This document shows positions 605 to 15,069 of a DNA stretch of 42,835 nucleotides, one piece after another (position 1 is the stretch's first letter; every line of letters starts with the position of its first letter). The notes under the pieces were generated by a model, which was not told the DNA's origin, made no database searches, and was given only the letters and a program-made list of their open reading frames with translations. Source of the DNA: Gemmatimonadota bacterium. GTDB lineage: Bacteria; Gemmatimonadota; Gemmatimonadetes; Gemmatimonadales; Gemmatimonadaceae. The stretch lies in NCBI GenBank assembly GCA_016871895.1, contig VHBO01000016.1, positions 1 to 42,835 of the forward strand, read 5' to 3'. The translations under genes and the position numbers were made by a program.

Positions 605-1171
605 TCAGTCCTTCGCCCGGTCCATGTACTCGCCGGTGTTCGGGTTCACCCGCACCCGCTCCCCCGACGCGATGAATTCCGGCACCTGGATCGTGACGCC
701 GTTCTCGAGCACCGCCGGCTTCGAGCTCGCCGTCTTCGTCGCCGTCTTCATCACCGGCGCGGTCTCCGTGATCGTCAGATTCAGGAACTGCGGCAGCTGC
801 ACCGACATCGGCCGCCCATTATAGAACTCGACCATCACCATCATGTTGTCCTGCATCCACGGCGCGTTGTCCCCGAGCGTCTCCTCGTCCATCTCGAGCT
901 GCTCGTAGTTGTCCGTGTTCATGAAGTGATACGTCTCACCGCTCTTGTACAGGAACTGGAGCTCCTGCGTCTCCATATCCGCCTTGTGGATCTGGTCGTC
1001 GGCGCGGAACCGATGCTCGAAGTTGTTCCCCGAGCGCAGGTTCTTCAGCTTCGCCTGCACCATCGCGCGGAGGTTCCCCGGCGTGTGGTGACGGAACTCG
1101 ATGATGCGGCAGGGATCGCCCTCGAACACGATCACCATCCCGCGACGGATCTGCGTGGCTGGCAGCGCCAT
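605..1171 (-). CDS. efp: Elongation factor P
   Basis: EF-P binds between the P and E sites of the ribosome and helps form peptide bonds at polyproline stretches. The 188-residue product has the usual family length and the three expected beta-barrel domains: a KOW-like N-domain, a middle OB domain, and a C-terminal OB domain ending near VRVNPNTGEY. The loop that normally carries the modified Lys or Arg reads TPGNLRAM (residues 30-37). The tip position after PG is thus Asn33, with Leu34 and Arg35 following, instead of the PGKG form. Start ATG gives a canonical N-terminus (MALPATQIRRG). No clear Shine-Dalgarno is visible. It sits 107 nt upstream of the tRNA array, with its own putative promoter at 1218-1247. 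Confidence 0.97.
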   Translation of the reverse strand: MALPATQIRRGMVIVFEGDPCRIIEFRHHTPGNLRAMVQAKLKNLRSGNNFEHRFRADDQIHKADMETQELQFLYKSGETYHFMNTDNYEQLEMDEETLGDNAPWMQDNMMVMVEFYNGRPMSVQLPQFLNLTITETAPVMKTATKTASSKPAVLENGVTIQVPEFIASGERVRVNPNTGEYMDRAKD

Positions 1172-1217
1172 AGGTCGGACTCGGACAGAAGGAAGGTCTA
1201 AACCTCGACAGCCGCTG

Positions 1218-1247
1218 AATTTAGCCGACAGCGGCGCCGAGGGTCAA
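1218..1247 (-). promoter_or_regulatory. Putative efp promoter
   Basis: On the minus strand TTGACC (1247-1242) and TAAATT (1223-1218) are separated by 18 nt and face efp, leaving a leader of roughly 40 nt. The -35 hexamer overlaps the stop codon of the upstream tesA-like gene, so efp probably has its own promoter. The -35 matches consensus in 5 of 6 positions and the -10 in 4 of 6. Confidence 0.5.
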
Positions 1248-1963
1248 CGGGGCGCGGTGGGCGCCGCCAATATCGGCCCGAGGCTCGCCCACATCGCCCG
1301 CGCCGCCCGACGGGCCCCCTCCGCATTCGGATGGATCCCGTCGTCCTGGTTGAGCGCCGGCACCCCCGCGATGCCATCCAAGAAGAACGGGATCAATCCG
1401 ACCCCCTCGGCCGACGCGACCGCCCCGAAGGCGTCGTGGAACGCCCGCGTGTACGCCGGCCCGAGGTTTCGTGGGGCCTCCATCTGCGCGAGTAGGATCC
1501 GGGCAGTGGGATTCGCACGCCGCACCTTCCCGATGATCGCCCGCAGGTTCGCCCGCGTGGAGTCGACATCGAGCCCGCGGAGCCCATCGTTCGCCCCGGT
1601 CTCGATCACCACCACCGCCGCCGGGCCCCGCAGGAGCCAGTCGGTCCGACGGAGCGCCCCCGCCGAGGTCTCGCCGCTCAACCCGGCCCCGTCGATGCGC
1701 GCCGAGACCCCGAGCGAGTCGGCGATCCGCTGCAGGACCGCGGGGTACGCGGAGTCCGGGTCGAGCCCGAGCCCCGCCGTGAGACTCGTCCCGATGATCA
1801 GGACGCGCGGCACGGCGGTTGCCGCAGGCGCGGCCGCCTGGGTTGATTCCATCGCAGCCGCGGGAACGCCCGCCCCATCCGCCGTCTTCTCCTGGGAGCC
1901 GCCGCACGCCGCCAGCCCGAGCGCCGCGACGACCCGCCATCCGACCGTTTTGATCCGATCCAT
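1244..1963 (-). CDS. tesA: TesA-like SGNH-hydrolase lipoprotein (esterase/thioesterase)
   Basis: This is a 239-residue SGNH-family hydrolase, predicted to cleave ester or thioester bonds in the periplasm. It begins with a lipoprotein signal whose lipobox LAAC places the lipidated Cys at residue 20. A low-complexity Ala-rich linker (about 24-50) follows. The SGNH blocks are GTSLTAGLGL (nucleophile Ser60; the family's usual GDSL Asp is Thr here), Gly95, GANDG (Asn125) and DGIHP (Asp208/His211). The TesA-typical stretch after the nucleophile (AGLGL...AYP) is conserved. The start ATG at 1963 is supported by the signal peptide directly behind it. It diverges from ybbA, and the two start codons overlap. 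The tesA/ybbA/ybbP neighbourhood is also known from E. coli, where TesA is soluble rather than lipidated. Confidence 0.9.
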   Translation of the reverse strand: MDRIKTVGWRVVAALGLAACGGSQEKTADGAGVPAAAMESTQAAAPAATAVPRVLIIGTSLTAGLGLDPDSAYPAVLQRIADSLGVSARIDGAGLSGETSAGALRRTDWLLRGPAAVVVIETGANDGLRGLDVDSTRANLRAIIGKVRRANPTARILLAQMEAPRNLGPAYTRAFHDAFGAVASAEGVGLIPFFLDGIAGVPALNQDDGIHPNAEGARRAARAMWASLGPILAAPTAPR

Positions 1964-2654
1964 GCTCGCAGCCCGCGACCTCACGAAGGAATACCCGAGC
2001 GGCACCGGTGCGCTCGCCGTCCTCAAAGATGTCTCGTTCGACATCCCGCAGGGAGCGTTCGTCGCCATCGTCGGTCCCTCGGGGAGCGGCAAGACGACCC
2101 TCCTCGGCCTCCTCGCGGGGCTCGATCTCCCCTCGCGCGGGGCGGTCACCCTCGACGGCGTGGATCTCACCCGTCTCGACGAAGACGGCCGCGCGCGCCT
2201 CCGCGGCGAGAAGGTCGGCTTCATCTTCCAGAGCTTCCAGCTGATCCCGACGCTCACGGCCGTCGAGAACGTTCAGGTGCCGCTCGAGCTCCGCGGTGAG
2301 GCCGATGCCGCCGACCGCGCGCAGGATCTCCTCGCGCGCGTCGGGCTCTCGGGCCGCACGCACCACTACCCGACCCAACTCTCGGGTGGCGAGCAGCAGC
2401 GCGTCGCGATTGCACGCGCCTTCGTGAATCGCCCGCGCATCCTCTTCGCTGACGAACCGACCGGGAACCTCGACGGTGCCACGGGCGAGAAGATCGTCGC
2501 GCTCCTCGATGCGCTGAACCGCGAGTCGGGCGCCACGGTGGTGATCGTCACGCACGACCTCACGCTCGCGGAACACGCGCAGCGCGTGATCCGGCTGCGT
2601 GACGGCGTGGTGATCGAGGACCGGCCGGGCCGCGGCGCGCCGTCCCCCGTCTGA
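1962..2654 (+). CDS. ybbA: ABC transporter ATP-binding protein YbbA (LolD/MacB type)
   Basis: This 230-residue ATPase has Walker A GPSGSGKTT (38-46), the signature LSGGEQQR, Walker B with ADEPTGNLD, and a switch His in VIVTHD. The EPTGNLD sequence is typical of the MacB/LolD/FtsE class, which works with FtsX-type permeases. Start ATG at 1962 gives MLAARDLTKEY, the usual N-terminus. The longer upstream reading frame is antisense to tesA and is not believed. Its stop overlaps the ybbP start by one base (TGATG), which implies translational coupling. Together they would form a mechanotransmission-type exporter acting on a periplasmic or membrane substrate. Confidence 0.95.
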   Translation: MLAARDLTKEYPSGTGALAVLKDVSFDIPQGAFVAIVGPSGSGKTTLLGLLAGLDLPSRGAVTLDGVDLTRLDEDGRARLRGEKVGFIFQSFQLIPTLTAVENVQVPLELRGEADAADRAQDLLARVGLSGRTHHYPTQLSGGEQQRVAIARAFVNRPRILFADEPTGNLDGATGEKIVALLDALNRESGATVVIVTHDLTLAEHAQRVIRLRDGVVIEDRPGRGAPSPV

Positions 2655-5200
2655 TGCCGAGCCCCGCGCTCGCCCCGCTCCTGCGCCTCGCGTGGCGCGA
2701 GAGCCGGACCGCCCGTCGGCGACTCCTGCTCTATATGAGCTCGATCTCCCTCGGCGTCGCAGCGCTCGTCGCGATCGACTCCTTCGCGTCGAACGTCCAG
2801 GTCTCCATCGAGGCGCAATCGAAAGCCCTCCTCGGCGGCGACCTGAACCTCCGCGCGCGCGACGGCTTCACCCCGGCGATCGACTCCCTCCTCGACTCCC
2901 TCGGGACCGTCGGCATCCCCTCAGCGAAGGTGCAGAGCTTCGGCTCGATGGCGATCGTCCCGCGCACCGGGGCCACGCGCCTCTCGCAGGTGCGCGCCGT
3001 CGGCGAGGGCTACCCGTACTACGGCGAGGTCCTGACGGAGCCGGCCGGCGCGTGGGGCTCACTCCACGACGACCGGAACGCCTTCGTCGACCCGTCGCTG
3101 ATGATCTCGCTCGGCGCGCAGGTGGGCGACACGCTGAACGTCGGCTTCGCCCGCTTCGTGATCCGCGGACGGATCGTGAATGTCCCCGGCGACCCCGGCA
3201 TCGCCGGCACGGTCGCGCCTCGCATCTTCATTCCCGCCCGCTACCTCGCGGAGACGCAGCTCACCGGCTTCGGGAGCCGCGTGGAGCACGAAGTCGTGGT
3301 CCGGCTCCCCGAGGGGACCGATGCGACGGCCTGGGTCGCGCCATTCAAGACACGGTTCGACTCGCTCGGCGTCCGCGTGCGCACCGTGCAGGAGAACGAG
3401 GTGGACCTCACCGACGCGATCGCGCAGCTCGCGCGCTTCCTCGGCGTGGTCGGGCTCATCGCCCTGCTCCTCGGTGGCATCGGCGTCGCAAGCGGCGTGA
3501 ACGCCTTCGTGCAACGGAAGATCGATACCGTCGCCGTGCTCCGGTGTCTCGGCGCCTCGAGCGCGCAGGTGCTCGTGATCTACCTCGTGCAGGCGGGGGC
3601 GATGGGGTTCCTCGGTGCCGCCCTCGGCGCGGCGCTCGGTGTCGGCATCCAGCTCCTCCTGCCGGAACTCCTCACGGGGTTCCTCCCCGTCGATGTCTCC
3701 GTCACCCCCGTGCCGTCGGCAATCGCCCTCGGGATCGGAATCGGCGTCTGGGTCGCGATCGTCTTCGCGCTGCGGCCACTCCTCGTGCTCCGGCTCGTCT
3801 CCCCGTTGCAGGCGATCCGTCGCGACGATGCGGCGCTCGCAGCCTCCCGGCGCGGCGACCACTGGAGCTGGGCGGTGGATCTGGCGCTCCTCGGTAGCGT
3901 CTTCGGCCTCGCGGCGCTGCGCGCCGAGACGCTCGCGCAGGGGGCGTGGTTCACCGCGGGGATCCTCATCAGCCTCGGGATCCTCTACGGGAACGCCTCG
4001 CTTGTCGCGCGCCTCGCCCGCCGGCTCAGCTCGCCGCGCTGGCCGTACGTGGTGCGTCAGGGAATCGCGAACCTCTACCGCCCCGCGAGCCAGACCCGTT
4101 CGGTGATCCTCGCGCTCGGGTTCGGCTCGTTCCTCGTGACGACCAACATCCTCGTGCAGGCCAACCTCCTGCAGTCCTTCGACGTGACGGCGTCGGCGGC
4201 GCGCGGCAACCTCGTCTTCTTCGACGTGCAGGAGGACCAGCAGCCGGGACTCGACTCCCTCCTTCGGCAGCCGGGCAACGACGTCGTGACGACCACGCCG
4301 ATCGTGACGATGCGCCTGCAGGAGATCAACGGGCAGTCGACGCAGGCGTGGGCGGAGGCGAAGGGGCTCTCGCCACGCTACTGGGCGCTGCGGCGCGAGT
4401 ATCGCTCGACCTACCGCGACACGCTCGAGGCGACGGAGACGATCACGGCGGGGCGCTTCCACGGTGCGGCCGCCGCGACGGATACGCTGTACGAGTTCTC
4501 GTTCGAGGAGGACGTCGCACGAGACCTGCAGCTCACCGTCGGCGACATCGTCACGTGGGACGTGCAGGGCGTCCCGGTCCGGGCGCGGCTCACGAGCACG
4601 CGGCAGGTCGAATGGGGGCGGTTCCAGCCGAACTTCTTCGCCGTCTTCCAGTCGGCGGCGATCGCCGCGGCACCGAAGCAGTTCATCCTCGTGGCCGCGG
4701 TCCCGAGCGACACGGCAGTGGCGCTGCTCCAGCGCGACGCGGTCCGCCGCTATCCGAACGTCTCAAGCATCGACCTCTCGCTGATCCGCAACACGATCAC
4801 GCAGATCGTCGACCGTGTCACGCTGACGGTGCGCTTCCTCGCCCTCTTCAGCCTCGCGATGGCGGTCCCGGTGCTCTTCAGCGCGGTGGCGGCCACGCGA
4901 CGCGACCGACTCCGTGAGGGGGTCCTGCTCAAGACGCTCGGCGCGACGAAGGGGCAGATCGGTCGGATCCTGCTCTCGGAGTACGCTCTGCTCGGGTTGC
5001 TCGGCGCGCTGAGCGGGATGCTCCTCGCCTTCGGCGGGGCGTGGAGTCTCACGCATTTCGTCTTCCAAGGGGACTTCGCCCCCGCGCTCGGTCCCGCGGC
5101 GGCGATCGCCGGGGTGATGATGGGGCTCGCGATCGGGATCGGGCTGCTCACGGGGCGCGACGTCTTCCGCGAGACGCCGATGGCGGCGCTCCGCGAGTGA
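2654..5200 (+). CDS. ybbP: FtsX-family ABC permease YbbP
   Basis: The 848-residue permease has a first transmembrane helix near residues 20-40, then a large MacB-like periplasmic domain (about 40-240). An FtsX core with helices around 260-390 follows, then further helices and a second periplasmic domain (about 500-700), and a final FtsX core of three helices ending at the C-terminus. The duplicated FtsX architecture and the length match YbbP. Its start overlaps the ybbA stop, and its stop overlaps the start of a small membrane HEFGH protein. The YbbAP complex is thought to extract or release hydrophobic molecules in cooperation with TesA. The substrate here is unknown. Confidence 0.92.
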   Translation: MPSPALAPLLRLAWRESRTARRRLLLYMSSISLGVAALVAIDSFASNVQVSIEAQSKALLGGDLNLRARDGFTPAIDSLLDSLGTVGIPSAKVQSFGSMAIVPRTGATRLSQVRAVGEGYPYYGEVLTEPAGAWGSLHDDRNAFVDPSLMISLGAQVGDTLNVGFARFVIRGRIVNVPGDPGIAGTVAPRIFIPARYLAETQLTGFGSRVEHEVVVRLPEGTDATAWVAPFKTRFDSLGVRVRTVQENEVDLTDAIAQLARFLGVVGLIALLLGGIGVASGVNAFVQRKIDTVAVLRCLGASSAQVLVIYLVQAGAMGFLGAALGAALGVGIQLLLPELLTGFLPVDVSVTPVPSAIALGIGIGVWVAIVFALRPLLVLRLVSPLQAIRRDDAALAASRRGDHWSWAVDLALLGSVFGLAALRAETLAQGAWFTAGILISLGILYGNASLVARLARRLSSPRWPYVVRQGIANLYRPASQTRSVILALGFGSFLVTTNILVQANLLQSFDVTASAARGNLVFFDVQEDQQPGLDSLLRQPGNDVVTTTPIVTMRLQEINGQSTQAWAEAKGLSPRYWALRREYRSTYRDTLEATETITAGRFHGAAAATDTLYEFSFEEDVARDLQLTVGDIVTWDVQGVPVRARLTSTRQVEWGRFQPNFFAVFQSAAIAAAPKQFILVAAVPSDTAVALLQRDAVRRYPNVSSIDLSLIRNTITQIVDRVTLTVRFLALFSLAMAVPVLFSAVAATRRDRLREGVLLKTLGATKGQIGRILLSEYALLGLLGALSGMLLAFGGAWSLTHFVFQGDFAPALGPAAAIAGVMMGLAIGIGLLTGRDVFRETPMAALRE

Positions 5201-7065: not shown

Positions 7066-8197
7066 TCCGCATCGAGCCCGGGAGCGCGTCGAGCAAGCGG
7101 TTGAGGTCCGCGGCGCGGTCGAGGCTCGTGACAAAGGTGAGGCCGTCGACGGTGACGACGAGGAGCTTCGAGACGCCGTAGACGACGACGCGCCCGTGGC
7201 CGGCGTGCACGACGTTGCTCTCCGCATCGACGAACCGCACGTCGCCGATCGCGCCGTTGCCGTCGTCGTCGAGATCGCGCGCGCGCCGCAGCGACGCCCA
7301 GGTGCCGACGTCGTCCCAGCCGAAGTCCCCGAGCGTGACGAGGAGTCGGTCGGTGCGCTCCAGCAAGCCCCGCTCGAGCGAGGTCGCGCGCACGCGCGCG
7401 ACGAACCCCTCGAGGTCCCCGCGCCGGACGGCATCGAGCGCCGAGGCGACCTCCGGCGTGTGGGTCGCGAGCTGCGACAGGACCGTCCGTGCTGGTGCGA
7501 CGAGGATGCCCCCGTGCCAGAGCGCGCCCGATGCGATCCGCAGCTCCGCCTCGACGGTGCTCGGCTTCTCGACGTAGCCCGTGGTCGCGACGACCCCACC
7601 GGCGGTGAGCGACTGGTCGGCGTCGATGGGCGGACCGGGCTGCACGTAGCCGAAGGCGGGCTCCGCGCGCGACGGGCGGATGCCGATGGAGACGAGGGCC
7701 TCGTCGCGCGCGGCGACCGCCGCGGCCCGACGCACCGTCTGCCGGAAGACCTCGGGAAAGGCGACGGCGAGGTCGGCGTGCACCGCACAACAGAGGGCGC
7801 CCGGTCCCGCGCGGCGCACCAGCTCCGCGGAGGCCCAGGCGAGCGCGGCCGCGGTGCCGAGCGGGCGCGGCTCGACGAGCACGTTCTCGTCGGGGACGTC
7901 GCGCGTCACGGAACGGATCGCCGGCGCGATGTCGTGACTCGTGAGGATCAGCACCCGCTCGGGTGGGATCAGGGGCTGCAACCGTCCGACGGTATCCTCG
8001 ATGAGCGTCCGCTCCGAGACGAGCGCGAGGATGGGCTTCGGGCGCGCGGGGGTGGAGAGGGGCCAGAAGCGCGACCCGATCCCACCGGCGAAGACCACGG
8101 CCCAGAGGGCGGCATCGATCGCGGGGTCGACCGTCGCGACGGGACCAGTGGACGTGAGGGTGCCGAGTCCGAGGTCGGCGTCGTCGAGCGGAGGCAT
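7037..8197 (-). CDS. manC: Mannose-1-phosphate guanylyltransferase-like nucleotidyltransferase
   Basis: The enzyme would make GDP-mannose (or a related NDP-sugar) for polysaccharide synthesis. The 386-residue product is a single-domain GT-A nucleotidyltransferase. The signature reads AGGIGSRFWPLS with a following PKP, where the family usually has AGGxGxRLWPLS and PK. Further landmarks are an EPRPLGTAAALA motif, FGYVQPG, VEKPS and GDFGWDDVGTW. I chose ATG at 8197 because a TACCTT -10 element lies 8 nt upstream, consistent with a leaderless mRNA. An in-frame ATG at 8296 and an earlier start at 8323 are alternatives. The glycosyltransferase cluster near 41-42 kb may use its product. Confidence 0.88.
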   Translation of the reverse strand: MPPLDDADLGLGTLTSTGPVATVDPAIDAALWAVVFAGGIGSRFWPLSTPARPKPILALVSERTLIEDTVGRLQPLIPPERVLILTSHDIAPAIRSVTRDVPDENVLVEPRPLGTAAALAWASAELVRRAGPGALCCAVHADLAVAFPEVFRQTVRRAAAVAARDEALVSIGIRPSRAEPAFGYVQPGPPIDADQSLTAGGVVATTGYVEKPSTVEAELRIASGALWHGGILVAPARTVLSQLATHTPEVASALDAVRRGDLEGFVARVRATSLERGLLERTDRLLVTLGDFGWDDVGTWASLRRARDLDDDGNGAIGDVRFVDAESNVVHAGHGRVVVYGVSKLLVVTVDGLTFVTSLDRAADLNRLLDALPGSMRINPAGPSPA

Positions 8198-8205
8198 CGC
8201 GGGCA

Positions 8206-8211
8206 AAGGTA
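8206..8211 (-). promoter_or_regulatory. Putative -10 element placing manC mRNA start at its ATG
   Basis: On the minus strand TACCTT ends 8 nt before ATG at 8197, so transcription would begin within one or two bases of the start codon. No good -35 hexamer is visible 17 nt upstream. The same spacing recurs before typA, the DUF58 gene and the ComEC-like hydrolase. Confidence 0.35.
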
Positions 8212-8307
8212 CGCCGCCGACACCGGGGCCAGCCACTCGGGGATTCCTGCGCGCGACCTCAGCGCGCGCCGGACGGACGGCGGGGTGTGGGGGCATGATG
8301 GTTCGGG

Positions 8308-10236
8308 ATGACTGCGAGGACACGACGAGGCGTGCTCATCGGCGCGATGGCGCTTGTCCGCGGACCGCTGGGGGCGCAAGGCCGGACGCCGGACGCACGA
8401 CCCGCCGACCTCTCACCTCCCACCTCACCCCTCACCCCTCCCCTCTGCCCCCCCGCCCCCACCGCCCTCGTCCTCGGCGGCGGCGGCGCCAAGGGGATGG
8501 CCCACCTCGGCGTGCTCGCCGTCCTCGACTCGCTCGGCATCACCCCCGATCTCATCGTCGGCACGAGCGCTGGCGCGGTGCTCGGCGCGATGTGGGCGAG
8601 CGGGGAGACGGCGGCGTCGATTGAGGCGCGGGTCCGAGCCGCCCGCCTCGACCGCATCGTGCGCCCCTACTCGCCGAGCCTCGGTCCGGCGTTCGCGTCG
8701 GCGCGGCCGCAGTTCGTCTGGGAGCGTGCGGGGGTGCGCTGGGTCGTGCAGGATGGCGCCGTGCGGGACGAGGAGGCCGACAGTGCGCTCGCGAGGCTCC
8801 TCGCGCCGGCGGAGGTGCGGGCCGGCGGCGACTTCGATGCCCTGCCGATCCCGTTCCGCGCGGTAGCGACCGACCTCCGCACGCGGGAGGTGGTCGTGCT
8901 CGACCGTGGACGCCTCGTCGACGCGGTGCGCGCGAGTATGGCGATCCCCGTACTCCTCCGACCGGTGCCCCGCGAGGGTCGTACCCTCGTAGATGGCGGC
9001 CTCAGCGCGAACAACCCCGTCGCCGTAGCGCGCGCGCTCGGCGCCCGACGGATTATCGTCGCGACGATCGCCTCCCCCGTGCCCGACGTGACACGCCTCG
9101 ATGACCCACTCACCGTGGCGAGCGCGGTCTTCGAGTTCCTCTTCCTCCAGGACCCGATGTCACTCGGCGACTCGGATGTCCGCATCGCGCTCCCCACGGC
9201 GACGTACGGGATGCTGGACTTCCGGCCGAGCACGCTCGATACGCTGATCGCACTCGGTCGCACGACGGCGACGGCGGCGCTCACCGCGCAGTGTGTGCGA
9301 CCGCTGACGGCGACCCCGACCCGCGTGACGATCCCCGTCACCACGACGGACGGGCGCATCATCCCGAGCGCTCCATCCGCGGAGCGCATCGGCCTGGCGA
9401 TCGCTTACGACCACGCGCTCTCCGCGCAGGCGTGGAGCCTCTGGACCGCGCCACCGACCCGACGAGGCGTCACGCGATCGGTCGAACTGACGGTGGCGCC
9501 GTGGTCACTTCGCATCCGGGGGACGGCGCTCGCGCGCCGGGCGGGCGCCTCACTCGACCTCAGCGCGCAGCGGCTGCCGACGTTCATCGACCGACGTGAG
9601 GTCGGCGGCGTGCAGGCCGACGATGCGCTGCTCACCATTGGTCGTCCCCGCGCTACGAGCGCCGGCTGGCAGGTGGATGGCGGGCTCGTCGGCTGGGCGG
9701 GACGGAGCGGCGGTGTCGATGGGCGCGCGGATGCCGGCCTCGCGCTGGCACTCACCCGACGCCGCCCACGTGATCCCGCCCCCGCGCTCCAACTGGAGGG
9801 CATCGCGGTCTCCCGCTGGCACCAGCTCACGATGGAAGCCCGACCGCGCGGCGCGCTCGGCGTCCTCCGGTTCGAGGGGCGCCTGCTCGCCAGCGTGGGC
9901 ACGGGTGTGCCCCTCGCGAGGCGGCCGACCCTCGGTGGCCTCGAGGGATTCACGGGGCGCCCCCTCCTCTCCGCGCGGGGCGACCATCTCGCCTCTCTCG
10001 CGCTTCGCACCGCGTGGCCGCTTCGACCACGGTTGCGCGCGGAGGTGGAACCGATGATCGGGCGGGTGGGCGAGGGTGGGTTCGGGCGCGGATCCGACCC
10101 GGCGCACGGCATCCTGCATCGTGGGCTCCGCGTCGGGCTCGCGGTCGAGACGCCACTCGGGACGCTTCGCGTGAGCGAGGGGTTCGCCGCCGACGGCGGG
10201 CGTGCCGCTTATGTGCGGTTCGGCGACTGGCGCTGA
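8308..10236 (+). CDS. Patatin-like phospholipase fused to a C-terminal beta-barrel-like domain
   Basis: This is a 642-residue exported lipase-like protein. A signal peptide ends near LGAQ (residue 24). A Pro/Ser/Thr-rich linker (about 30-52) encoded by a pyrimidine-rich repeat tract follows. The patatin domain (about 52-300) shows the oxyanion motif GGGGAKG (57-63), the nucleophile elbow GTSAG (Ser87) and the dyad Asp in DGG (229-231). Residues of about 380-642 are rich in alternating polar and apolar stretches with repeated GLxVGLxVExP-like strands and end in an aromatic-containing strand (FGDWR). That resembles an Omp85/BamA-type barrel and recalls PlpD, the type Vd autotransporter. The barrel assignment is inference. 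A CATGAT element lies 8 nt before the start codon. Confidence 0.9.
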   Translation: MTARTRRGVLIGAMALVRGPLGAQGRTPDARPADLSPPTSPLTPPLCPPAPTALVLGGGGAKGMAHLGVLAVLDSLGITPDLIVGTSAGAVLGAMWASGETAASIEARVRAARLDRIVRPYSPSLGPAFASARPQFVWERAGVRWVVQDGAVRDEEADSALARLLAPAEVRAGGDFDALPIPFRAVATDLRTREVVVLDRGRLVDAVRASMAIPVLLRPVPREGRTLVDGGLSANNPVAVARALGARRIIVATIASPVPDVTRLDDPLTVASAVFEFLFLQDPMSLGDSDVRIALPTATYGMLDFRPSTLDTLIALGRTTATAALTAQCVRPLTATPTRVTIPVTTTDGRIIPSAPSAERIGLAIAYDHALSAQAWSLWTAPPTRRGVTRSVELTVAPWSLRIRGTALARRAGASLDLSAQRLPTFIDRREVGGVQADDALLTIGRPRATSAGWQVDGGLVGWAGRSGGVDGRADAGLALALTRRRPRDPAPALQLEGIAVSRWHQLTMEARPRGALGVLRFEGRLLASVGTGVPLARRPTLGGLEGFTGRPLLSARGDHLASLALRTAWPLRPRLRAEVEPMIGRVGEGGFGRGSDPAHGILHRGLRVGLAVETPLGTLRVSEGFAADGGRAAYVRFGDWR

Positions 10237-10282
10237 GCTGCGTCAGCGCCGCGTCGGCGCCGCGCCAACTGAACGAGCGGCG

Positions 10283-10715
10283 TCAGGGCCGCGCGACGTC
10301 GACGACTTCGATGCGGACGAGTTGCGTCACCCAGCGCGAGGGTCGCGCGGTACCCGTCCGCGCCGACGAGGACGAGCACACGCGCCAGCGCGGGACCGCG
10401 CAACGAATCCGTCGCGATGCCGGCGAGCCGGAGCGCCGCCCGAAGTTCGACCCCCTCCCAGGTCCAGCGGTGGCCGTGCACCTCGGAGCGCCCGCTGTGA
10501 CGCGGCAGCGCGCCGAGCTACGTGGCGGTGAGGACGTGCGCGCCGCCGTTCGGGTCGACGACCGTGAGCGACGTCGCGATCGGTGTCGTGGGCGCCGGCG
10601 CGTGATCGTGGTCCTGCGCCCTGAGGCGTGGGGCGATGACGAGCAGCGCCCCGATGCCAAGGGCAACCCCGAGGCGACGATGCGCTCCGCCGAGCCCCCA
10701 CACGCGCACCGGCAC
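10283..10715 (-). pseudogene. Decayed molybdopterin-oxidoreductase-fold exported protein
   Basis: From GTG at 10715 the minus strand encodes a signal peptide (ending near RLRAQ) and a short stretch ending HVLTAT. An in-frame TAG (10520-10518) then interrupts it. The same frame continues with LGALPRH, then WTWEGVELRAALRLAGI and GADGYRATLAL. This matches the pattern of sulfite-oxidase/molybdopterin-binding domains (W-GV-L--LL--AG, then ADGYR-xx-AL). The expected roughly 40-residue following segment is missing, and the C-terminal strand WVTQLVRIEVVDVARP continues in a shifted frame to a stop at 10285-10283. A nonsense codon plus a frame-shifting internal deletion indicate a pseudogene. Sequencing error could explain one lesion but hardly both. 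Confidence 0.7.
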
Positions 10716-13090: not shown

Positions 13091-13885
13091 TTATGCGGGC
13101 GGGGTGCCGTGCGCACCAGGCGCGCCGGCCAGCATCGCCCGCCGCGTCGCGACGAACCAGAGCGCGCTCCCGATGACGATGCCGCCGATCGCCCCGGGGC
13201 CGCCGAACCAGACGACGGCAGGATCCTCCGTGTAGCGCGCGGCGATTCCGGCGAGCGCCCAGGCGACGGTGAACGGGAAGGTCAGGTTCCGGCGCGCCCA
13301 GGCCATCCACCACCCCAGCGCGGTCGCGATGCCCATCATCGCGAGAGCCCAGAGCCGCTCGGGGATGCCGAACCCGCCGAAGCCGACCACGTGCGCCACT
13401 TGGAAGGTGTTGGCGATCACGGCGACGGAGATCCAGGCGAGGTAGAGGTCGTGGGGGACGATCAGGCAGAGCCGCTCCCACCGATCGGGCTCCGGCGCCC
13501 GACGCAGCACCTCCCCGACGGCGATGAGGACGCCGAGGAAGGCGAGCATCAGGATCATCGCTTCGAGATACCGCGCGTACGAGAAGAGCACGATCCAGCC
13601 GACGTTCAACGCGCCGACGATGGTCCACCACGGGCCGAGGCGCTCGACCGCGCGGCGGCCACGCGCGCCGGGCCAGAGCTGGCAGGCGAGGCAGAGCATC
13701 AGGCCGGCGTAGATGACGCTCCAGATGCCGAAGACCCAGTTCGCGGGGAGGAAGCGCGACGGGTACGCGTTGGCGATCTCCCCGATGTTCCGGCCACTGA
13801 GGCCGCCGGAGGCGGCCACGAAGTTGCCGTAGAGGACGCCGAGGAAGACGGCGAGGTTGAGGAGGCGAAACGCGACTGGTCGCAT
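13091..13885 (-). CDS. TspO/MBR-related tryptophan-rich membrane protein
   Basis: The 264-residue protein has about eight hydrophobic helices and many tryptophans. The stretch RFLPANWVFGIWSVIYAGL resembles the PAxWxFxxxWxxxY core of TspO/MBR translocator proteins, but the protein is longer than classic five-helix TspO (about 160 residues). It fits the larger tryptophan-rich relatives of unknown ligand. ATG at 13885 directly precedes a hydrophobic helix (FRLLNLAVFLGVLYG). The much longer open frame upstream is antisense to the metallo-hydrolase and is not real. It diverges from that hydrolase with 27 nt between starts. Confidence 0.8.
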   Translation of the reverse strand: MRPVAFRLLNLAVFLGVLYGNFVAASGGLSGRNIGEIANAYPSRFLPANWVFGIWSVIYAGLMLCLACQLWPGARGRRAVERLGPWWTIVGALNVGWIVLFSYARYLEAMILMLAFLGVLIAVGEVLRRAPEPDRWERLCLIVPHDLYLAWISVAVIANTFQVAHVVGFGGFGIPERLWALAMMGIATALGWWMAWARRNLTFPFTVAWALAGIAARYTEDPAVVWFGGPGAIGGIVIGSALWFVATRRAMLAGAPGAHGTPPA

Positions 13886-13900
13886 GTCAGAGTCGTGACG

Positions 13901-13906
13901 TAGGTT
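13901..13906 (+). promoter_or_regulatory. Putative -10 element before the secreted metallo-hydrolase
   Basis: TAGGTT ends 6 nt before ATG at 13913, which would give a leaderless or nearly leaderless mRNA. No convincing -35 is seen. The identical hexamer occurs in the DUF58 promoter. Confidence 0.35.
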
Positions 13907-13912
13907 CACCGG

Positions 13913-14782
13913 ATGCGACGTCCGCCGCCGCTCCTGCAGTGTATCGCCCTCGCGCTCCTCGGCGCGACCCGACTCGCCGAGGCGCAGCGGGCGCCCGCGT
14001 GGTGCGCGCGCCCCGACACCGCCGGCGTGGAGATCCGGTTCCTTGACGTCGGCCAAGGGGATGCCGCGCTCATCGTCACGAGCGACGGCCGCCGCGCGCT
14101 GATCGATGGCGGGCCCGACGGTGACCTCCTCGACGCCTATCTCACGCGCGACCGGATCGACCGCCTCGACCTCGTGATCGCCTCGCACCACCATCTCGAC
14201 CACATCGGTGGGCTGCCGGCGGTGCTCGCCTCGCGGGCCGTGACGAACGTCGTCGAGAACGGGATGCCGGCGACCACGCGGATCTACGGACGGCTCGTGG
14301 ACGCGATGGCGCGGCGCGGGAGTCGCGTCCTGGCGGCGACCCCCCGTGAGCTCACCCTCGGCACGGCGATGTTCCGCATCCTGCCGCCGTGGTCTGCGGC
14401 CGAGGACCAGAACGATGCGTCGGTGGGGGTGATCGTCTCCCACGGGGCGTTCCGGGCGCTCTTCACGGGTGATGCGGAGACGAGGGCCGTCGATGCGTGG
14501 ATCCGCGACGGTCGCATCCCGCGGGTGCAGGTGGCGAAAGCGGGACACCACGGGAGCCGAAATGGGGTCACCCCCGCGCTCGTGCGCGCGGCGGCCCCGA
14601 GCCTCCTCGTGATCTCGGTGGGCGAGGACAATCGCTACGGGCATCCGCATCCGGAGGCACTCGCCGCGTGGCGCGCGCCGACCCGACGAATCCTCCGCAC
14701 CGATCTTGAGGGTACGATCCGCGTCCGCGGCTGCGCCGACGGACGCTATTTCACCACCACGGCACGGGAGGGCGGCCGATGA
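13913..14782 (+). CDS. Secreted ComEC/Rec2-type metallo-beta-lactamase-fold hydrolase
   Basis: The 289-residue protein carries a signal peptide ending near AEAQ (residue 25) and then one metallo-beta-lactamase-fold domain. FLDVGQGDA (43-51) is the hallmark of the ComEC C-terminal domain family. The metal motif HHHLDH (92-97) provides HxHxDH. Later motifs are FTGDAE, AGHHGSRNG and GHPHPEAL. The ComEC channel helices are absent, so it is a free periplasmic or secreted hydrolase, perhaps a nuclease or phosphodiesterase. The DUF3006 gene starts within its stop codon (ATGA), a pairing I know as common for this family. Confidence 0.92.
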   Translation: MRRPPPLLQCIALALLGATRLAEAQRAPAWCARPDTAGVEIRFLDVGQGDAALIVTSDGRRALIDGGPDGDLLDAYLTRDRIDRLDLVIASHHHLDHIGGLPAVLASRAVTNVVENGMPATTRIYGRLVDAMARRGSRVLAATPRELTLGTAMFRILPPWSAAEDQNDASVGVIVSHGAFRALFTGDAETRAVDAWIRDGRIPRVQVAKAGHHGSRNGVTPALVRAAAPSLLVISVGEDNRYGHPHPEALAAWRAPTRRILRTDLEGTIRVRGCADGRYFTTTAREGGR

Positions 14783-15069
14783 ATCGATCCGTTCGTTACG
14801 CTGTCGATCGCATCGAGGGCGACGCCGCCTCCGCGATCGTCGTTTTGGTCGCCGATGCGGACGGCGCGGTCGTGGAGGTACCAAGAACGGCCCTGGGGCG
14901 CTCGGCCATCGAGGGGGCCATTCTCGTCGTCCCCCTCCGCGCGGACGGGACCCCCGCGTGGGCCTCCGCTGCGCGGGATTCCGCCGAGGAGGCCCGTCGC
15001 CGGGCCGCGGCCGCTGACACCCTCGCGACACTGCGCCGGAAGGATCGCGGCGGCGACCTCACGCTATAG
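14779..15069 (+). CDS. DUF3006-type small protein
   Basis: The 96-residue product begins RYAVDRIEGDAASAIVVL, matching the DUF3006 pattern (xxAVVDRIEGDxAVLL) with a short beta-rich half. The C-terminal half is a charged helix (AEEARRRAAAADTLATLRRK). There is no signal peptide, so unlike its partner it would be cytoplasmic. The start overlaps the stop of the ComEC-like hydrolase, indicating translational coupling. The function of DUF3006 is not established. An 86-nt convergent gap with a weak 6-bp hairpin (15137-15155) follows. Confidence 0.85.
   Translation: MNRSVRYAVDRIEGDAASAIVVLVADADGAVVEVPRTALGRSAIEGAILVVPLRADGTPAWASAARDSAEEARRRAAAADTLATLRRKDRGGDLTL

What the first reader, a model, noticed from the sequence alone, without database searches (positions are those of the whole stretch)
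8308..10236. Patatin with a Pro-rich linker and barrel-like C-terminus
The lipase domain follows a signal peptide and Pro/Ser/Thr linker and is joined to about 260 residues with barrel-like periodicity. This recalls type Vd autotransporters but with an unusually long middle region. The linker is encoded by a pyrimidine-rich repeat that may vary in length.
Basis: partly seen in the sequence, partly recalled or inferred. Interest (0 to 1): 0.5.

Follow-up and report, generated by a model that had tools for sequence, protein, structure and literature searches.

The report
Outer-membrane lipase missing its middle domain
This gene encodes a lipid-cutting enzyme fused to an outer-membrane barrel, a known bacterial design, but in this species and one sister species the connecting domain typical of the family has been cleanly lost, which could help test how these proteins sit and work in the membrane.

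Summary
The ORF at 8308-10236 (642 aa) is a real, conserved gene. It has a signal-peptide-like start, a Pro-rich linker, a patatin domain with intact Ser87/Asp229 and a predicted 16-stranded Omp85-type barrel (360-639). It is a patatin-Omp85 protein (PlpD-like, 'type Vd').

Between patatin and barrel lie 38 residues, against 80-115 in 52 other family rows (43 distinct); only one sister species (80% identical) shares the loss. AlphaFold shows no POTRA in the window protein and a clear one in a congener.

The locus is syntenic with POTRA-containing congeners and the pair nests among them, so one lineage-specific loss is simplest. It coincided with a long barrel stem branch (1.9 changes per site, against 0.5 for patatin) and replacement of the C-terminal Phe by Arg. 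Selection is purifying (dN/dS 0.09 patatin, 0.20 barrel).

Most likely it is an outer-membrane-anchored periplasmic phospholipase whose enzyme domain hangs on a flexible tether instead of docking on a POTRA. Location, assembly and activity are inferred. New variant of a known kind.

The parts
8308..10236 (+). Whole gene: POTRA-less patatin-Omp85 protein, 642 aa plus stop
   Evidence: 80% identical orthologue of 642 aa in G008; dN/dS 0.18 overall
8308..8379 (+). Signal-peptide-like N-terminus, residues 1-24, probable cleavage after ...GAQ
   Evidence: read by eye from the sequence and the orthologues; no signal-peptide program was run
8380..8445 (+). Pro-rich linker, residues 25-46, of this length only in the window protein and its sister among the rows
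   Evidence: alignment; dN/dS 0.92 over 22 codons
8408..8440 (+). Degenerate heptamer repeat (ACCTCAC consensus, 4.7 copies) encoding part of the linker
   Evidence: score 38
8455..9300 (+). Patatin domain, residues 50-331; GGGxKG at 58-63, GTSAG with Ser87, DGG with Asp229
   Evidence: Pfam 54-241; PlpD 5fya_A Z 34.2, rmsd 2.1, 249 residues aligned; Ser87 and Asp229 in 56 of 56 rows
8767..8817 (+). Residues 154-170, matching the PlpD helix that touches POTRA; six of six columns conserved at 85% or more are changed in both POTRA-less proteins
   Evidence: suggestive only, see report
9307..9384 (+). Disordered junction, residues 334-359, in place of the POTRA domain
   Evidence: pLDDT under 50 at 337-358; segment counts
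9385..10224 (+). Predicted 16-stranded Omp85/TamA-like barrel, strands from residue 360 to 639
   Evidence: TamA 4c00 Z 24.2, rmsd 2.7, 271 residues
10231..10233 (+). C-terminal Arg642 where 47 of 49 other rows with a residue there have Phe

Best explanation
The gene encodes a patatin-Omp85 protein (PL-Omp85, 'type Vd') that has lost its POTRA domain in one small lineage of an uncultured Gemmatimonadaceae genus. Shown by computation: an intact patatin catalytic dyad, a predicted 16-stranded Omp85-type barrel, a disordered 38-residue junction in place of the POTRA, a nested position among POTRA-containing congeners at a syntenic locus, and purifying selection since the two species split. Inferred: it is exported by Sec and its barrel inserted by BAM; the patatin domain stays on the periplasmic face on a flexible tether, its lid still reaching the barrel, and cleaves inner-leaflet phospholipids (outer-membrane lipid homeostasis), as proposed for PlpD, but without POTRA docking.
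For: PlpD patatin is the best sequence match and best structural match (Z 34.2). Barrel: 16 strands, TamA Z 24.2 and BamA Z 23.4. No POTRA: 38 and 37 residues against 80-115 in 52 rows. A control congener folded with the same rows shows a beta-alpha-alpha-beta-beta unit at 332-401 and aligns to TamA and BamA from inside the last POTRA, while the window model aligns from the barrel on. Synteny and nesting. dN/dS 0.09 patatin and 0.20 barrel. The periplasmic location and lipid role rest on the PlpD work (PMC11116518). Cys47 in 54 of 54 and Cys329 in 53 of 53 other rows fit an oxidising envelope compartment (inference).
Against: No experiment on this protein. The PlpD location argument leans on patatin-POTRA contact, which is absent here, so it transfers less well. 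The barrel diverged strongly on the stem and lost its C-terminal Phe, so it may have changed role or assembly. Pfam's Omp85 models do not hit the window protein (they hit only 11 and 6 of 30 family rows at E <= 0.1). Model confidence is middling (pTM 0.55) and low in the first barrel strands (pLDDT 55-63 over 361-410). The signal peptide was not tested by a program.
Confidence: 0.6

Rival explanations
1. Surface display or secretion: with the POTRA gone, the patatin domain is no longer held in the periplasm and is displayed or released outside, as first proposed for type Vd autotransporters.
For: POTRA contact is a main argument for the periplasmic location of PlpD (PMC11116518) and is absent here. 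The Pro-rich linker could serve as a spacer (inference).
Against: The linker lies before the patatin domain, not between it and the barrel. A folded patatin domain would have to pass a small closed pore, which Hanson et al. judge unfavourable (Discussion). No released fragment or surface signal is known for this protein.
Confidence: 0.12
2. Barrel repurposed: after POTRA loss the barrel took on another role (plain anchor or pore) and the enzyme works uncoupled from it.
For: Barrel identity to congeners 0.28-0.32 against 0.54-0.73 among five POTRA-containing congeners, while patatin is 0.56-0.61 against 0.63-0.83; barrel stem 1.9 against patatin stem 0.5; Phe to Arg at the C-terminus.
Against: Strand number and the LGG..GF.G motif are kept and the barrel still aligns best to TamA and BamA. 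The lid region of patatin is kept in the alignment.
Confidence: 0.14
3. A decaying gene: loss of the POTRA is a step in reductive evolution, since 9 of 17 genomes of the genus show no match at E <= 1e-20.
For: Patchy presence; both POTRA-less genomes are 2.2-2.3 Mb; the stem is accelerated in both domains.
Against: No stop or frameshift in either species; dN/dS 0.09 in patatin and 0.20 in the barrel, against 0.20 and 0.20 in patatin and 0.21 and 0.28 in the barrel of two POTRA-containing pairs. G003, also small (1.9 Mb), has the longer form.
Confidence: 0.09

Closest known systems
PlpD of Pseudomonas aeruginosa (prototype PL-Omp85, type Vd)
   Same: Patatin domain joined to a C-terminal Omp85 barrel; patatin fold Z 34.2; catalytic Ser/Asp kept
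   Different: PlpD has one POTRA between the two (PMC11116518); here it is absent, the junction is disordered and the C-terminal residue is Arg
POTRA-containing orthologue of the same genus (Gemmatimonadaceae bacterium SJ530, L038)
   Same: Same syntenic locus, patatin 58% and barrel 31% identical (row L005, the same protein)
   Different: 97 residues instead of 38 between the domains, a predicted POTRA at 332-401, C-terminal Phe, no Pro-rich linker
POTRA-less Omp85 proteins: bacterial 'noNterm' barrels; plant Toc75-IV and OEP80tr
   Same: Omp85 barrel without a POTRA (passages of PMC4104836, and PMC4195282)
   Different: Described there as barrels without an N-terminal extension or as truncated Toc75/OEP80 forms; here an enzyme domain is joined to the barrel

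Membership tests
PL-Omp85 / type Vd (PlpD family) | N-terminal patatin domain with Ser-Asp dyad | tested here: met
   Pfam; PlpD matches; dyad in 56 of 56 rows
PL-Omp85 / type Vd (PlpD family) | C-terminal 16-stranded Omp85 barrel | tested here: met
   Predicted only: 17 strand elements, 504-511 and 514-517 counted as one strand; TamA and BamA Z above 23. Pfam Omp85 does not hit
PL-Omp85 / type Vd (PlpD family) | One POTRA domain between patatin and barrel | tested here: not met
   38 residues, disordered, against a predicted POTRA in the congener. It is a descendant of the family that lacks this feature
PL-Omp85 / type Vd (PlpD family) | Orthology to POTRA-containing members | tested here: met
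   synteny; patatin tree; barrel tree by the quick method
PL-Omp85 / type Vd (PlpD family) | Homodimer with a mobile lid on barrel strand 1 | not testable with these tools
   reported for PlpD; no multimer prediction here
Autotransporter (type V secretion) in the functional sense | Passenger domain crosses the outer membrane | not testable with these tools
   disputed for PlpD itself
noNterm Omp85 barrels | No N-terminal extension before the barrel | tested here: not met
   a patatin domain of about 280 residues precedes the barrel

The most novel reading that the evidence does not exclude
A natural experiment: a patatin-Omp85 protein lost its POTRA, rewrote its barrel and its former docking surface, and still works. 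The POTRA would then not be needed to assemble or hold a patatin-barrel lipase, and a changed topology (enzyme freely tethered, or even exposed) or a changed barrel role arose with the loss.
Probability: 0.25. Interest if true: 0.62.

Novelty: new variant of a known kind. Interest (0 to 1): 0.45.

Why it matters
Whether type Vd proteins secrete their lipase or hold it in the periplasm is disputed, and the case for the periplasm leans on contact with the POTRA (PMC11116518). A naturally POTRA-free orthologue with POTRA-bearing congeners at the same locus gives a clean pair for asking what the POTRA does: assembly, anchoring of the enzyme, or regulation through the lid. Six searches of the held library listed no paper whose title or shown start of abstract describes a POTRA-less patatin-Omp85 protein; the library lacks most subscription papers and all bioRxiv preprints, and I opened only the three papers cited.

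Tried and rejected
Long middle region: rejected, the segment is shorter than in the 52 rows measured.

Divergent POTRA hidden in the junction: rejected as far as the tools go. Residues 334-359 number 26, mostly at pLDDT under 50, with no strand before 360 except an isolated bridge at 332. Pfam POTRA does not hit, but it hits only 4 of 30 family rows at E <= 0.1, so length and model count for more than that miss.

POTRA split off into a separate gene: Pfam POTRA hits the own genome at one place, contig C1, in a 769-aa frame that also holds an Omp85 match, presumably BamA. The low sensitivity of the Pfam model applies here too, so this is not excluded.

Assembly artefact: unlikely, because the sister's own contig shows the same architecture with 20% amino-acid divergence. 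Raw reads were not available.

Barrel swapped in from elsewhere: not supported; the barrel tree keeps the pair in the genus clade (SH-aLRT 99, quick method), though the branch is long.

Other POTRA-less cases: in a length screen of 134 loci with an ORF hit (of 136 loci L002-L137), 125 ORFs were complete with the DG motif: 110 long, 3 intermediate (window gene, sister, L070), 12 short after the motif. Length is only a proxy for a POTRA, and some rows are one protein fetched from two collections. L070 (Maricaulis MAG) has a POTRA-like block and a stop inside the barrel. L017 has a shortened segment of 80 residues that still shows part of the block; not followed up. Not examined: 11 of the 44 family genomes with a match, whose loci were not fetched, and the 470 of 550 relatives that one search did not keep.

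Docking-surface decay as proof: kept only as suggestive. Fisher p is 1.3e-6 at the 85% threshold (6 of 6 columns), 0.0066 at 90% (2 of 2) and 0.058 at 95% (1 of 1); the stretch 154-170 was chosen after the changes were seen; congeners L004 and L006 change 3 of the 6 and L008 2.

Promoter and terminator scan of 8150-10500: none found. Paper search for Gemmatimonad plus patatin: 6 papers, none on this by title. The repeat finder on 8370-8480: no direct repeat family, in contrast.

Full report
WHAT IS THERE. The ORF at 8308-10236 on the + strand encodes 642 residues. The window is contig 16 of a 2.28-Mb genome, 96% complete. A congener's contig is titled Gemmatimonadaceae bacterium SJ530. Pfam finds one domain, patatin, at 54-241 (E 4.9e-33). 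The best solved relative by sequence is the PlpD patatin domain (E 1.1e-35, residues 53-333). It is the only place in its genome that the Pfam patatin model finds at E <= 0.001.

IS IT A REAL GENE. A second species of the genus (G008) has a 642-aa orthologue, 80% identical, in a conserved neighbourhood. Between the two, mismatches fall 93, 50 and 253 times on codon positions 1, 2 and 3, and dN/dS is 0.18 overall. By region it is 0.09 in patatin and 0.20 in the barrel; five neighbouring genes give 0.05-0.14, and two POTRA-containing pairs give 0.20 and 0.20 in patatin and 0.21 and 0.28 in the barrel. The Pro-rich linker is near neutral (0.92, only 22 codons).

BARREL. AlphaFold2 with 30 family rows predicts 17 strand elements between 360 and 639, which I count as 16 strands because 504-511 and 514-517 continue one another (mean pLDDT 79.6, pTM 0.55). 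Foldseek finds PlpD first, then TamA; BamA follows. Structural alignment gives TamA Z 24.2 (rmsd 2.7, 271 residues, model 356-642) and BamA Z 23.4 (model 357-642). Confidence is low in the first strands (pLDDT 55-63 over 361-410), and the Pfam Omp85 models do not hit this protein.

NO POTRA. Aligned to orthologues, the window protein lacks a block of about 60 residues between patatin and barrel. From Cys329 to Asp368 it has 38 residues and its sister 37. Of 54 other rows, 52 have both ends: one (L017) holds 80, the others 94-115; 43 of the 52 are distinct. As a control I folded an orthologue of the same genus with the same rows: pTM 0.85, a beta-alpha-alpha-beta-beta unit at 332-401, then 16 strands counted the same way. 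That model aligns to TamA from chain residue 189 and to BamA from about 345, hence including the last POTRA; the window model aligns only from TamA 263 and BamA about 422. In a wider length screen of 125 complete ORFs, only the window gene, its sister and L070 fell in the range expected for patatin plus barrel without POTRA, and L070 proved to have a POTRA-like block and an early stop.

WHEN AND HOW OFTEN. In the genus, 8 of 17 genomes have the gene at E <= 1e-20. Two lack the POTRA-length block; five have 97 residues in the segment; the sixth, G003, is split over two contigs and is judged longer from its match coordinates. Next to the gene lie the nucleotidyltransferase (manC-like) and ctaA genes in G008, G009, G002, G006, G003 and SJ530 (G016); the G005 contig ends too close to show them. 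A tree from patatin columns alone, 43 rows, places the two POTRA-less proteins together (100/100), sister to POTRA-containing L004 (97/88), inside the genus clade (100/100). One loss is the simplest reading.

WHAT CHANGED WITH THE LOSS. The stem of the pair is 0.50 changes per site for patatin and 1.9 for the barrel (quick method). Barrel identity to five congeners is 0.28-0.32, against 0.54-0.73 among those five; for patatin 0.56-0.61 against 0.63-0.83. Against 16 outgroup rows the pair is less similar than the congeners in 16 of 16 for the barrel and 15 of 16 for patatin. The C-terminal residue is Phe in 47 of 49 other rows that have one there and Arg in both POTRA-less proteins. In residues 154-170, six of six columns conserved at 85% or more are changed in both species. 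This stretch matches the PlpD helix whose Q135 and V146 crosslink to POTRA residues Q383 and V388 (passages; mapping by the alignment with numbering). The enrichment weakens at stricter thresholds, the stretch was picked after the fact, and two POTRA-containing congeners change three of the six, so it is suggestive only.

HOW IT PROBABLY WORKS. For PlpD, Hanson et al. 2024 (PMC11116518; abstract, passages, dimer and lid sections and Discussion seen) report a periplasmic patatin domain docked on POTRA, a homodimer and a mobile lid that binds barrel strand 1, and propose a role in outer-membrane lipid homeostasis. Here the catalytic dyad (56 of 56 rows), a recognisable lid region and the barrel remain, so the likeliest function is the same: an outer-membrane-anchored periplasmic phospholipase with its enzyme on a flexible tether. 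Export, insertion, location, dimerisation and activity are all inferred. Surface display, barrel repurposing and decay are the rivals.

LINKER REPEAT. Part of the linker DNA is a degenerate 7-bp repeat (4.7 copies, score 38). The sister has a different heptamer (CCTCCAG type) at the same place and no length change in residues 25-46. A period-7 CCTCNNN pattern occurs in 11 of 17 genomes of the genus; it clearly exceeds the reversed-pattern control in G009 (58 against 5), G006 (39 against 6) and G002 (32 against 2), less so in G016 (23 against 15); overlapping matches are counted. So the repeat is real; length variation was not seen between the two species.

COMPARISON. By descent this is a PL-Omp85 protein; by architecture it fails one defining feature, the POTRA. 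POTRA-less Omp85 barrels are known in bacteria ('noNterm', passages of PMC4104836; its POTRA section was also read) and in plants (passages of PMC4195282), without an enzyme domain as described there. Six library searches listed no POTRA-less patatin-Omp85 by title or shown start of abstract. Verdict: a new variant of a known kind, of moderate interest.

Noticed in passing
window 8408-8440; G009, G006, G002, G016, G008, G012 and other genomes of the genus: A dispersed period-7 CCTCNNN repeat occurs in 11 of 17 genomes of the genus, with units that differ between species (CCTCACA/CCTCCCA, CCTCCAG, CCTCCGT); some copies lie as close inverted pairs. One such repeat, with the unit type changed between the two species, encodes part of the linker here.
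   Followed up: partly
patatin residues 47 and 329 (window 8446-8448, 9292-9294): Two cysteines flank the patatin domain and are kept in 54 of 54 and 53 of 53 other family rows; they could form a disulfide.
   Followed up: no
L017 (G036:C33): A relative with a shortened patatin-to-barrel segment (80 residues), possibly a partly eroded POTRA.
   Followed up: no
L070 around 6911 (Maricaulis salignorans MAG): A patatin-Omp85 gene with a POTRA-like block and a stop codon inside the barrel.
   Followed up: partly
window 1101-5200: ABC transporter ATPase followed by an FtsX/MacB-like permease of 848 aa.
   Followed up: no
window 13091-15031 (-): A 646-aa frame with a weak TspO/MBR match only in its middle-to-C-terminal part, residues 420-542 (E 2.9e-7), so a fusion or an over-long frame.
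   Followed up: no
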